Below, piece after piece: positions 21,334 through 25,385 of a DNA stretch of 49,230 nt; positions within the stretch are counted from its first letter, which is position 1; each line of letters starts with the position of its first letter. Made by a program: the position numbers and the translations under genes. Source of the DNA: Candidatus Bipolaricaulota bacterium (GTDB taxonomy: Bacteria > Bipolaricaulota > Bipolaricaulia > Bipolaricaulales > Bipolaricaulaceae); NCBI GenBank assembly GCA_014361015.1, contig JACIWJ010000007.1, forward strand, positions 1-49,230, in the 5' to 3' direction. The notes beneath the pieces are model-generated. The model saw nothing but the letters and a program-made list of their open reading frames with translations, ran no database searches and was not told the DNA's origin.

Positions 21334-23955
21334 CTACCCACGCGGGACCGGTTCGATCACGACCCGACCTTGAGCCCGATCGTACCGGAGCACGACCCGC
21401 TCCCCCTCGGCGACGTTCCCCTCGAGGAGGGCGCTGGCAAGCGGGTTCTCGACCTCGCTCCGGATGCGCCGCTTGAGCTCGCGGGCCCCGTACTCGGGTC
21501 GGTACCCCACCTCCGCCAGGTGGTCCACGAGCGAGGAATCGAACTCGAGTTCCACGCCCTGCCCCCGCGCCACCCGCCGCACCCGTTCCAGCTGCAGGAG
21601 GACGATGCTGCGGATGTGGTCCTTCGTGAGCGCGTGGAACACGATCACCTCGTCGATCCGGTTCAGGAACTCCGGCCGGAAGTGGCCGCGCAGGACGTCC
21701 ATCAGCCGTTCCTTGAGCGCCCCGTAGTCGAGCCGCTTCCCCTCCGGCGCGGTGAGGTTGGCCTGGATGAGGTCGCTCCCGACGTTGCTCGTGGCGATGA
21801 GGATCGTGTTCGAGAAGTCGACCACCCGGCCCTTGCCGTCGGTGAGCCGCCCGTCGTCGAACACCTGGAGGAGGATGTTGTGGACCTCGGGGTGGGCCTT
21901 CTCGATCTCGTCGAGGAGGACCACCGAGTACGGCCGCCGCCGCACCCGCTCCGTGAGCTGCCCGCCCTCCTCGTACCCCACGTACCCCGGCGGCGCCCCG
22001 ACGAGCCGGGACACGGTGTGCCGCTCCGTGTACTCGCTCATGTCGATCCGGACCATCGCCTCCTCGTCCCCGAACACAGCCCAGGCGAGGGTCTTGGCGA
22101 GCTCGGTCTTCCCGACGCCGGTGGGGCCGAGGAAGAGGAACGTCGCGATCGGGCGGTGCCCCTCCTTGAGCCCGGCCCGCGACAGGCGCACCGCGGCGCT
22201 CACCGCGGCCACCGCTTCGTCCTGGCCCACCACCCGCTCGTGGAGGACCTCCTCGAGCCGGAGGAGCTTCTCCTTCTCCTCGGCGGTGAGATCGGCGACC
22301 GGAATCCCGGTCAGGGAGGACACGATCTCCGCCACGTGCTCGGCGCGGACCTCGGGCGTCCCCGAGGCGACGCCCTTCTTCCACGTCTCCGTGGCCTGGG
22401 CGAGGGCCTTCTCCTTGTCGGCGATCGACGCCTCGATCTCCTTGGCCCGGTCGAACTGCTTCCGGGTCGTGGCGTAGTCCTGTTCACGCTTGAGGGCCTT
22501 GATCTCCGCCTCCAGCTCCTGGACCTCGGCCGGCCGGGACGTCGAGGAGATGCGGACCCGCGCCGCGGCTTGGTCGATGAGGTCGATCGCCTTGTCCGGG
22601 AGGTAGCGGCCGGAGATGTAGCGGTCGGAGAGCTCGGCCGCGGCCACGATCGCCTCGTCGGTGATCCGCACCTTGTGGTGGGCCTCGAACCGATCGCGCA
22701 GCCCGCGCAGGATGTGGACGGTCTGGTCCACGGTCGGCTCGGCGATGAACACCGGCTGGAACCGCCGCTCGAGCGCGGCGTCCTTCTCCACGTGCTTCTG
22801 GTACTCGTTCAAGGTCGTCGCGCCGATCAAGTGGAGCTCGCCCCGGGCGAGGGCCGGCTTGAGGGTGTTGGCGATGTCCAGGCCCCCCTCCGCCTGCCCG
22901 GCCCCCACGATCGTGTGGAGCTCGTCGATGAACAGGATCAGCTCGTCCTGGTGGGCGAGGATCTCGTCGAGGAGCTCCTTCACCCGCTCCTCGAACTCCC
23001 CGCGGTACTTCGTGCCTGCAACGAGGGAGTTCACGTTGAGCTCCACCAGGCGCTTCCCGCGCAGCACCTCCGGGACCTCGTCCCGGGCGACGCGCTGGGC
23101 GAGGCCCTCCACGATCGCCGTCTTCCCCACGCCCGGCTCCCCGATGAGGACGGGGTTGTTCTTCTTCCGGCGGGCGAGGACCTCGATCACCGTCTCGATC
23201 TCCTTGGCCCGGCCGATGACCGGGTCGAGCTTCCCCGCGCGGGCGAGCGCGGTCAGATCGCGGGAGTGCTTGTCGAGGATCGGGGTCGCCGACTTCGGCC
23301 CCCGGCCTGGGCCTGGCTCCCGCCCGGGGGTGCGCCGGAGCTGGCCCTGCACGGCGTCCGGGCTGAGGCCGAACCGACGCAGGACCTCGCCCCCCAGGCC
23401 GTCGGGCTCCGCGAGGAGCCCCAGGAGGAGGTGCTCCGGGCCCACGTAGGAGTGCCCGAGGTCGCGCGAGGCGTGGAACGCCGTCTCGAGGACCGCCTTC
23501 ACGCGGGGGCTCATCCCCACGCGCACCGTCTCCCCCCGCTCCGCCCCGAGCGTCCCCCGGGGCGCGTTGTGCTCGACGTAGCCCCGGATGTCGTCGGGAC
23601 TGAGCTGGGCCTTGCGGAGGACGTCCCCCCCGGCGTCGCTTTCGGCGAGGGCGTAGAGGAGGTGCTCGGTGTCCATCTCCCGCTTTCCGAACCCCACCGC
23701 CACCCGCGCCGCCCGCTGGAGGAGCTCCCGGCTCTCGTCGGAGAGGTACGATCCGAGGTCCGGCGCCTCGCGGTCCGGCCGCCGCCGCGGGGAGAGGAAC
23801 CCCTCCAAGAGCGACTCCCACGGCGAGAACCACTCCTCGCCGCGCAGCTGGGCGTAGTCCGCCTGGCACAGGTGCAGCACCCGCCGCTCGCCATCCTGAA
23901 CGACCTCGGCCGTGACCGTGGCCGGGCGGATCCGACACACATCGCACAACGGCAT
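21334..23955 (-). CDS. clpC: ClpC-type AAA+ unfoldase with N-terminal zinc-finger-like motif, no ClpP-binding loop
   Basis: An N-terminal motif (C4-x2-C7 ... H28-L-C30) resembles the ClpE/McsA zinc finger but lacks the fourth Cys. Clp_N repeats follow (about 75-205), then two AAA modules with Walker A GEPGVGKT (about 272) and GPTGVGKT (about 612). The middle domain between them is short and UVR-like, as in ClpC and not ClpB. In module 2, the stretch between SNVGSDLIQ and FRPEFLNRIDE lacks any [IVL]G[FL] tripeptide, the loop that docks ClpP in ClpA/ClpC/ClpX. ATG at 23955 overlaps the protease stop (TGATG) and sits 6 bases behind GGAGG. It likely acts as an unfoldase with another partner or as a disaggregase. 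Confidence 0.92.
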   Translation of the reverse strand: MPLCDVCRIRPATVTAEVVQDGERRVLHLCQADYAQLRGEEWFSPWESLLEGFLSPRRRPDREAPDLGSYLSDESRELLQRAARVAVGFGKREMDTEHLLYALAESDAGGDVLRKAQLSPDDIRGYVEHNAPRGTLGAERGETVRVGMSPRVKAVLETAFHASRDLGHSYVGPEHLLLGLLAEPDGLGGEVLRRFGLSPDAVQGQLRRTPGREPGPGRGPKSATPILDKHSRDLTALARAGKLDPVIGRAKEIETVIEVLARRKKNNPVLIGEPGVGKTAIVEGLAQRVARDEVPEVLRGKRLVELNVNSLVAGTKYRGEFEERVKELLDEILAHQDELILFIDELHTIVGAGQAEGGLDIANTLKPALARGELHLIGATTLNEYQKHVEKDAALERRFQPVFIAEPTVDQTVHILRGLRDRFEAHHKVRITDEAIVAAAELSDRYISGRYLPDKAIDLIDQAAARVRISSTSRPAEVQELEAEIKALKREQDYATTRKQFDRAKEIEASIADKEKALAQATETWKKGVASGTPEVRAEHVAEIVSSLTGIPVADLTAEEKEKLLRLEEVLHERVVGQDEAVAAVSAAVRLSRAGLKEGHRPIATFLFLGPTGVGKTELAKTLAWAVFGDEEAMVRIDMSEYTERHTVSRLVGAPPGYVGYEEGGQLTERVRRRPYSVVLLDEIEKAHPEVHNILLQVFDDGRLTDGKGRVVDFSNTILIATSNVGSDLIQANLTAPEGKRLDYGALKERLMDVLRGHFRPEFLNRIDEVIVFHALTKDHIRSIVLLQLERVRRVARGQGVELEFDSSLVDHLAEVGYRPEYGARELKRRIRSEVENPLASALLEGNVAEGERVVLRYDRAQGRVVIEPVPRG

Positions 23956-24806
23956 CACGCACCTCCGCGCGCCGGGCTCCGCTGGGGAGCGTAGGGGACG
24001 GGGATGAACTCCACGCCGGGCCGGCGCTGCCGGGCCTGGGGGTAGAGGTCCATCAGCTCGTACACCTCGCGGGGCATGTCCTCTCCCACCGGGAGGCCCA
24101 GTTCCCGCAGCTCCTCGGCCGTGATCGGGTAGTCATGCGTCCACCGCCCCTCGGAGAGCCTCCGCGCCACCTCCCGCGCCCGGTCGTCGGGGAGCTTGTC
24201 CCGGAGGAGGGCGTACACGGTCTCGTAGACCTGGCCGATCGCCTTCCGCGCCAGGTCGCCCAAGATGAGGGTCTGGTCGTCGCGGTTGGGGTTCGGCTCC
24301 TCGAGGGCCTTGAGGACCGACGCCGCGGGGTAGTACCCCTGACCGGTCCCCAGCTGGGGATCCACCGGTCCGAGGACCGCGTTGGGGTCCATCACGATCT
24401 CGTCAGCGGCGAGCGCGATGAGGGTCCCCCCGCTCATCGCGTAGTGGGGGACGAACACCGTCACCTTGCCCGGGTGGCGCTTGAGCGCACAGGCGATCTG
24501 CTCCGCGGCGAGGGTCAGCCCTCCCGGGGTGTGAAGGACGAGGTCGATGGGCATCTCGGGCGGGGTCATCCGGATCGCCCGCAGCACCTGTTCTGAGTCC
24601 TCGATGTCGATGTACCGCGCGAGCGGAACCCCGAGGAAGCTGACCGCTTCCTGGCGGTGGATGAGGGTCACGACCCGGCTCTTCCGCCTCCGCTCGAGGG
24701 CCTGAATCGCCAATCCCCGCCGGAACTCGAGGATCCTCCGCCCGAAGAACGGGACCAACGCCTGGAGGAGGAACAGAAGAAACAGCAGGTTGATGATGTC
24801 GCCCAT
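23955..24806 (-). CDS. membrane-anchored ClpP-fold serine protease (SDH/PF01972 family)
   Basis: This 283-residue protein starts with an N-terminal membrane helix (about 4-21, IINLLFLLFLLQALVPFF), then a Clp/crotonase-fold domain of the serine dehydrogenase proteinase family. The HTPGG at about 92-96 would form the oxyanion site, and S125 in HYAMSGGTLIAL is the expected nucleophile; LGPVDPQLG follows as in SppA-like proteins. The catalytic domain should face the cytoplasm if the short N-terminus stays outside, but topology is uncertain. It lies between hsp20 and the Clp ATPase, with a TGATG overlap to the latter, suggesting a joint role in membrane protein quality control. Confidence 0.88.
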   Translation of the reverse strand: MGDIINLLFLLFLLQALVPFFGRRILEFRRGLAIQALERRRKSRVVTLIHRQEAVSFLGVPLARYIDIEDSEQVLRAIRMTPPEMPIDLVLHTPGGLTLAAEQIACALKRHPGKVTVFVPHYAMSGGTLIALAADEIVMDPNAVLGPVDPQLGTGQGYYPAASVLKALEEPNPNRDDQTLILGDLARKAIGQVYETVYALLRDKLPDDRAREVARRLSEGRWTHDYPITAEELRELGLPVGEDMPREVYELMDLYPQARQRRPGVEFIPVPYAPQRSPARGGA

Positions 24807-24863: not shown

Positions 24864-25313
24864 TCACTCGACCTTGACCTCGAACTCCCCCTCGGTCTCG
24901 GGGACCCGCATCAGGGGCACCTCCACGACGAGGATCCCGTTCTCGAACCGGGCCTTGATCCCCTTGCGGTCCTCGACGTCCTCGGGGAGGGGGAACACCC
25001 GCCGGAACGCCCCGTAGCGGCGCCCCATCCGGATGTAGTTCTCCTCCCGGACCTCTTCGGACCGCTTCACCTCGCCGGTGATGACGAGCCGGTTCCCCTC
25101 GACCTTCACCTGGACGTCGTCCCTCGCCACCCCAGGGAGCTCGGTCTCGATGACGAGCTTCTTGTCCTTCACGTACACGTCGCTCCGGCCAAAGCTCGGG
25201 AAGAGCTCGAGGTCGGCGAACGTCCCGAAGTCCCTGAAGAACTCGTCCATGATCCGCTCCATCCGTGAGGCGATGGAGAACGGCTCACGCCACAGCACAG
25301 GCAGTCTCACCAT
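24864..25313 (-). CDS. hsp20: Hsp20 small heat-shock protein (alpha-crystallin family)
   Basis: This 149-residue protein has the alpha-crystallin domain (about 45-135) with DVYVKDKKLVIETELPGVARDDV at its start and the signature ARFENGILVVEVP near the end. A short helical N-terminus (MERIMDEFFRDF) and an acidic tail complete it. ATG at 25313 is chosen because AAAGGAGG lies 8 bases upstream; a GTG at 25322 touches the ribosome site. It is a holdase chaperone and the first gene of the heat-shock unit, with its own consensus promoter and a CIRCE-like element. Confidence 0.95.
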   Translation of the reverse strand: MVRLPVLWREPFSIASRMERIMDEFFRDFGTFADLELFPSFGRSDVYVKDKKLVIETELPGVARDDVQVKVEGNRLVITGEVKRSEEVREENYIRMGRRYGAFRRVFPLPEDVEDRKGIKARFENGILVVEVPLMRVPETEGEFEVKVE

Positions 25314-25328
25314 GACGCTCACCTCCTT

Positions 25329-25355
25329 TTAGCAGTCTTACCACGAGACTGCCAG
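25329..25355. promoter_or_regulatory. CIRCE-like inverted repeat (possible HrcA operator)
   Basis: The element reads TTAGCAGTC-N9-GACTGCCAG. The HrcA operator CIRCE is TTAGCACTC-N9-GAGTGCTAA. Arm length and spacer agree exactly, the left arm matches 8 of 9 and the right arm 6 of 9. The mismatch at position 7 of the left arm (C to G) is matched by G to C in the right arm, so pairing and symmetry are kept. It sits between the -10 element and the ribosome site of hsp20, the normal CIRCE position. Confidence 0.6.
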
Positions 25356-25356
25356 A

Positions 25357-25385
25357 ATTATAGGGACGGGGGCGGGGGGTGTCAA
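25357..25385 (-). promoter_or_regulatory. consensus sigma-70 type promoter of hsp20
   Basis: On the minus strand, TTGACA (25385-25380) and TATAAT (25362-25357) are separated by exactly 17 bases: a perfect consensus for the housekeeping sigma factor. Transcription would start near 25350, inside the CIRCE-like element. A promoter of this strength needs repression, which fits HrcA control. Confidence 0.85.

What the first reader, a model, noticed from the sequence alone, without database searches (positions are those of the whole stretch)
25329..25385. Perfect consensus promoter with a compensated variant CIRCE in front of hsp20
TTGACA-N17-TATAAT is exact. Directly downstream sits TTAGCAGTC-N9-GACTGCCAG, with CIRCE's exact 9-9-9 geometry and a paired C/G to G/C exchange in the arms. 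The exchange keeps symmetry, which suggests co-evolution with an HrcA-type repressor of altered specificity. It would place Hsp20, the membrane protease and the Clp ATPase in one HrcA regulon.
Basis: partly seen in the sequence, partly recalled or inferred. Interest (0 to 1): 0.65.

Follow-up and report, generated by a model that had tools for sequence, protein, structure and literature searches.

The report
HrcA-type operator before hsp20 operon
In front of a small heat-shock protein gene sits a strong promoter with the binding site of a common bacterial heat-shock repressor laid over its start point; the spelling of the site looks unusual but turns out to be a widespread ordinary version, so this is a well-supported but mostly routine heat-shock switch.

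Summary
It is not chance: 61 of 69 hsp20 genes in relatives of the class carry such an operator, most with near-consensus promoters at fixed distance. The genome has one hrcA, with CIRCE-like sites before hrcA-grpE-dnaK-dnaJ and groESL, so HrcA control of hsp20 is very likely. In related genera the downstream Clp ATPase gene has its own operator of this kind, supporting the proposed regulon. The 'HrcA of altered specificity' idea is not supported: the exact variant TTAGCAGTC-N9-GACTGCTAA occurs in many phyla before groES, hrcA, dnaK, htpG, clp and rpoH; genomes with a single HrcA carry canonical, variant and mixed sites together; the recognition helix here is ordinary. CIRCE before small-Hsp genes is already reported in lactobacilli. 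Left unexplained: within this class the hsp20 operator has more symmetric inner arms than the hrcA and groES operators of the same genome (39 of 46 and 34 of 37 genomes, never the reverse), perhaps graded repression. Binding is inferred, not measured.

The parts
25380..25385 (-). -35 box TTGACA
   Evidence: conserved in most relatives
25357..25362 (-). -10 box TATAAT
   Evidence: conserved in most relatives
25329..25355 (-). HrcA-type (CIRCE-like) operator CTGGCAGTC-N9-GACTGCTAA, over the predicted transcription start
25318..25327 (-). Shine-Dalgarno AGGAGGTGAG of hsp20
24864..25313 (-). hsp20 gene (small heat-shock protein, ATG start; open frame reaches to GTG 25322)
   Evidence: PF00011 72.8 bits
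23955..24806 (-). SDH-family Clp-fold serine protease gene, second gene of the putative operon
   Evidence: NF047768 408 bits over cut-off 250
21334..23958 (-). ClpG-like Hsp100 ATPase gene, third gene of the putative operon, overlaps the protease gene by 4 nt
   Evidence: NF033607 1248 bits, below its cut-off of 1900; order conserved

Best explanation
This is the HrcA operator and housekeeping-sigma promoter of an hsp20-(SDH protease)-ClpG operon. HrcA, made from its own autoregulated hrcA-grpE-dnaK-dnaJ operon, binds the 9-9-9 inverted repeat as a dimer, reading mainly the outer TTAGCA/TGCTAA cores. Because the repeat starts 1 nt after the -10 box, bound HrcA blocks initiation at an otherwise very strong promoter. 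On heat stress GroEL is occupied by unfolded proteins, HrcA loses activity, and the operon switches on together with groESL and dnaK. The G/C instead of C/G pair at arm position 7 is within the ordinary tolerance of HrcA operators. Shown here: sequence, conservation, a single hrcA, sites at the two classic HrcA operons, promoter geometry. Inferred: binding, heat induction, GroEL-dependent control (from HrcA work in other bacteria), and that the three genes form one transcript.
For: One hrcA with its own site, and a groES site; operator before 61/69 hsp20, 65/70 hrcA and 50/51 groES genes in relatives with invariant core bases; consensus promoter and fixed spacing; same operator before clpG/clpB genes in other genera; loss at hrcA and hsp20 together in genera g7 and g13; exact variant before groES, hrcA, dnaK, htpG, clp, rpoH elsewhere; usual recognition helix; no second HrcA-like repressor.
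Against: No binding or expression data. The hsp20 site differs from canonical CIRCE at 4 of 18 arm positions and from the own hrcA and groES sites in the inner right arm. A different repressor with a similar core cannot be excluded by sequence. The genome is 94% complete.
Confidence: 0.88

Rival explanations
1. An HrcA of altered specificity co-evolved with the exchanged base pair.
For: The hsp20 operators of the class are mostly symmetric in the exchanged form (44 of 62 have G/C at 7/21); left-arm position 7 is rarely C at hrcA or groES too.
Against: Right arms at hrcA and groES keep the standard G at position 21 in most genomes. The exact variant is widespread in unrelated phyla. Canonical and variant sites coexist in genomes with one HrcA. 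Helix ordinary.
Confidence: 0.04
2. The repeat belongs to another repressor that reads TTAGCA cores and controls only hsp20 and clp genes; HrcA controls hrcA and groES.
For: Inner arms differ consistently between hsp20 and hrcA/groES operators of the same genome.
Against: Identical outer cores and 9-nt spacer in all three; no HrcA paralogue; the exact hsp20-type operator sits before hrcA and groES in other phyla; joint loss at hrcA and hsp20 in g7 and g13.
Confidence: 0.05
3. The repeat acts mainly as an RNA hairpin at the 5' end of hsp20 mRNA (thermometer or stabiliser), not as a DNA operator.
For: It would lie at the mRNA 5' end; predicted stem of -12.1 kcal/mol; mean hairpin energy -10.0 at hsp20 against -6.3 at hrcA and -5.6 at groES; changes at 7/21 and 8/20 are compensated more than expected (51/62 and 58/62).
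Against: The core is invariant in sequence, not only in pairing. Outer positions 1 and 3 break pairing in the window's genus. The Shine-Dalgarno sequence is outside the hairpin. No Rfam match. Pairing with the coding start is not conserved.
Confidence: 0.03

Closest known systems
CIRCE/HrcA operators (TTAGCACTC-N9-GAGTGCTAA) of groESL and hrcA-grpE-dnaK-dnaJ operons
   Same: 9-9-9 geometry, TTAGCA/TGCTAA core, place at the transcription start, hrcA in the genome with its own site.
   Different: Base pair at arm position 7 exchanged (G/C for C/G), outer bases CTG; target is hsp20.
CIRCE before small heat-shock genes in lactobacilli: L. acidophilus hsp16 (PMC3179173), L. plantarum hsp1 (PMC3842655)
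   Same: CIRCE-type operator in the promoter of a small-Hsp gene; for hsp1 supported by hrcA and ctsR mutants.
   Different: Canonical sequence at hsp16; hsp1 is also under CtsR; the gene is not reported there as leading an SDH protease and ClpG-like operon.
CIRCE before rpoH and CTGGCACTC-type CIRCE at groESL in delta-proteobacteria (PMC545781)
   Same: Shows the same outer-base deviation (cTgGCACTC...GAGTGCcAA) and HrcA targets beyond groE/dnaK.
   Different: Arm position 7 is canonical there.

Membership tests
CIRCE/HrcA operator | Inverted repeat with 9-nt arms and 9-nt spacer | tested here: met
   7 of 9 arm positions complementary in hsp20 direction
CIRCE/HrcA operator | Arm sequence TTAGCACTC/GAGTGCTAA | tested here: inconclusive
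   14 of 18 arm bases match; the differing pair at 7/21 is a common form before HrcA targets in other phyla
CIRCE/HrcA operator | hrcA in the genome, with sites before hrcA-dnaK and groESL | tested here: met
CIRCE/HrcA operator | Position at the promoter or transcription start | tested here: met
   1 nt after the -10 box, conserved; the start itself is predicted, not mapped
CIRCE/HrcA operator | Bound by HrcA; derepressed on heat shock | not testable with these tools
   needs gel shift and expression data
hsp20 RNA thermometer | Structure that masks the Shine-Dalgarno sequence, or a match to a known family | tested here: not met
   The operator hairpin leaves the Shine-Dalgarno sequence out; no Rfam match up to E = 1

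The most novel reading that the evidence does not exclude
In this bacterial class one HrcA sets a graded heat-shock programme through operator symmetry: hsp20 (and less strictly clp) promoters carry palindromic inner arms that bind tightly and keep the genes off, while hrcA and groES operators keep mismatched inner arms so that essential chaperones have a basal level. The same palindrome may also cap the hsp20 mRNA with a hairpin.
Probability: 0.3. Interest if true: 0.42.

Novelty: new member of a known kind. Interest (0 to 1): 0.24.

Why it matters
It gives a little-studied bacterial class a well-supported HrcA regulon (hrcA-grpE-dnaK-dnaJ, groESL, hsp20, clp, in some lineages a sigma factor). 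It shows that the textbook CIRCE consensus is too narrow at arm position 7, so scans with the strict consensus will miss likely HrcA sites. The within-genome symmetry difference is a simple, testable hypothesis for graded repression by one repressor.

Tried and rejected
(1) Alternative pairing of the operator's left arm with GAGACTGCC at the start of the hsp20 coding region: 10 bp including G-U in the window's genome, but not conserved even in the genus, so dropped. (2) Known RNA thermometer: no Rfam match, Shine-Dalgarno not in the hairpin. (3) HrcA paralogue: the PF03444 scan found only weak hits in other short proteins. (4) A fourth operator-like hit in the own genome (C14:19869) lies inside a coding frame, taken as chance. 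(5) Loose 6-6 pattern scans at 2 mismatches are at background (198 against 230 in the control), so they cannot define the regulon. (7) A text search for the variant letters gave only unrelated papers at the top of the list. (8) A PDB sequence search with the own HrcA found nothing at E 0.001.

Full report
Observation. The sequence is exactly as described: in hsp20 direction TTGACA-N17-TATAAT, one base, CTGGCAGTC-TCGTGGTAA-GACTGCTAA, Shine-Dalgarno AGGAGGTGAG, ATG. The promoter scan gives this one site with 12/12 matches against 0.1 expected. The arms are fully complementary over GCAGTC/GACTGC, the only zero-mismatch case in the window and in the genome. The outermost bases (CTG against TAA) are not symmetric.

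Surroundings. hsp20 (PF00011) is followed at about 57 nt by an SDH-family Clp-fold serine protease gene, which overlaps a ClpG-like Hsp100 ATPase gene by 4 nt. The NCBIfam ClpG model matches at 1248 bits, below its 1900-bit cut-off, so 'ClpG-like' is as far as I go. clpG follows hsp20 in all ten genus members that have hsp20, with the SDH gene in between in five of them; hsp20-SDH-clpG is also found in genera g5 and g12. A nicotinate phosphoribosyltransferase gene diverges on the other side.

The regulator. The genome (1.5 Mb, 94% complete) has one hrcA. A CIRCE-like site, TTAGCAATC-N9-GAGTGCTAA, lies directly before hrcA-grpE-dnaK-dnaJ, and TTAGCAGCC-N9-GAGTGCTAA before groES-groEL.

Conservation. 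In 100 genomes of the same class I compared upstream regions of hsp20, hrcA and groES where they could be fetched. Operators were found before 61 of 69 hsp20 genes (58 with at least 10 of 12 core bases, plus three genus members at 9), 65 of 70 hrcA and 50 of 51 groES genes. Arm positions 2, 4, 5, 6 and their partners do not vary among these; since sites were picked by their core, some of that constancy is by construction. Before hsp20 the promoter is consensus or nearly so in most, and in most the operator starts -1 to +5 nt from the -10 box. Genera g7 and g13 lack the operator at both hrcA and hsp20, which fits a shared repressor. In other genera the same operator stands 4-15 bp before most of the clpG or clpB genes found this way, in one case with the SDH protease gene directly after clpG (L249). 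In family f5 a sigma-70 factor gene has one too.

The variant is not special. Among the 80 loci listed the neighbours were groES 33, hrcA 14, groEL 2, dnaK 1, hsp20 1, clp 1 and a sigma factor 14, with 14 unassigned. The sigma factor tested is RpoH, and among the unassigned several are htpG and one is ftsH. These lie in Clostridia, Chloroflexota, Patescibacteria, Cloacimonadota, Xanthomonadaceae and others. Sixteen of these genomes were searched for all related sites. Several mix forms: G105 and G106 have canonical sites at groES and the variant at hrcA; G111 has near-canonical sites at hsp20, clp and groES, and the variant at dnaK; G110 has the variant at hsp20 and mixed sites at groEL and clp. 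Each of the eight genomes checked has a single HrcA match. One HrcA thus faces both forms, so the exchange needs no altered specificity. The HrcA recognition helix in this class is of the usual (S/C)(S/P)AT(I/V)RN(E/D) type ('usual' from general knowledge of HrcA).

Mechanism (inferred from known HrcA biology). HrcA at the start site blocks RNA polymerase at a strong promoter. Under heat, free GroEL falls, HrcA becomes inactive, and the operon is induced with groESL and dnaK. Footprints of Campylobacter HrcA over transcription starts (PMC7464140) match this layout.

What is left over. Inner-arm symmetry differs between targets. At position 7/21 complementary bases occur in 51/62 hsp20, 2/65 hrcA and 5/50 groES operators. 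In paired comparisons within genomes hsp20 is more symmetric than hrcA in 39 of 46 (7 equal, 0 less) and than groES in 34 of 37 (3 equal, 0 less). Several different base pairs serve at hsp20 (GT/AC, GA/TC, AA/TT, CT/AG). I read this as possible tuning of repression strength, perhaps with an mRNA 5' hairpin as a by-product. At hrcA the Shine-Dalgarno sequence lies in the operator spacer, so a perfect hairpin there could harm translation; at groES that reason does not apply. Relatives are not independent samples, and I did not correct for phylogeny.

Known or new. CIRCE before small-Hsp genes is described for L. acidophilus hsp16 (PMC3179173) and supported by mutants for L. plantarum hsp1 (PMC3842655). 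In C. acetobutylicum hsp18 is instead CtsR-linked and HrcA-independent (PMC3828012). CTGGCACTC-type outer bases and CIRCE at rpoH are in PMC545781. This is a new member of a known kind. The organism's name was not established.

Noticed in passing
L266 about 1481-2518; L267 2195-3211; L117 (G043) 1297-2094: A sigma-70 (RpoD-like) factor gene lies behind its own operator of this kind in family f5, and behind hsp20 in family f4: a possible HrcA-controlled sigma factor cascade.
   Followed up: partly
L289, L283, L310, L336 and other Xanthomonadaceae loci: The exact variant operator lies within a few bases of the start of a sigma factor gene (RpoH in the one tested, L289) in Stenotrophomonas, Lysobacter and relatives.
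   Followed up: partly
L293 3922-4250; L304 4691-5159: The exact operator also lies close before FmdB-type zinc-ribbon proteins (family match tested in L293 only), a possible unrecognised HrcA target.
   Followed up: no
G026:C1:31187-31309; hsp20 upstream regions of G070, G082, G092, G094: Two operators in tandem near hsp20 in some relatives.
   Followed up: no
L002 1501-1540 (hrcA of the own genome): The Shine-Dalgarno sequence of hrcA (AAGGTGGTGA) lies inside the operator spacer and right arm, conserved in the genus.
   Followed up: partly
25300-25309: GGCAGTCTC at the start of the hsp20 coding region (plus strand) repeats the operator's left arm and could pair with it in mRNA; not conserved in relatives.
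   Followed up: yes
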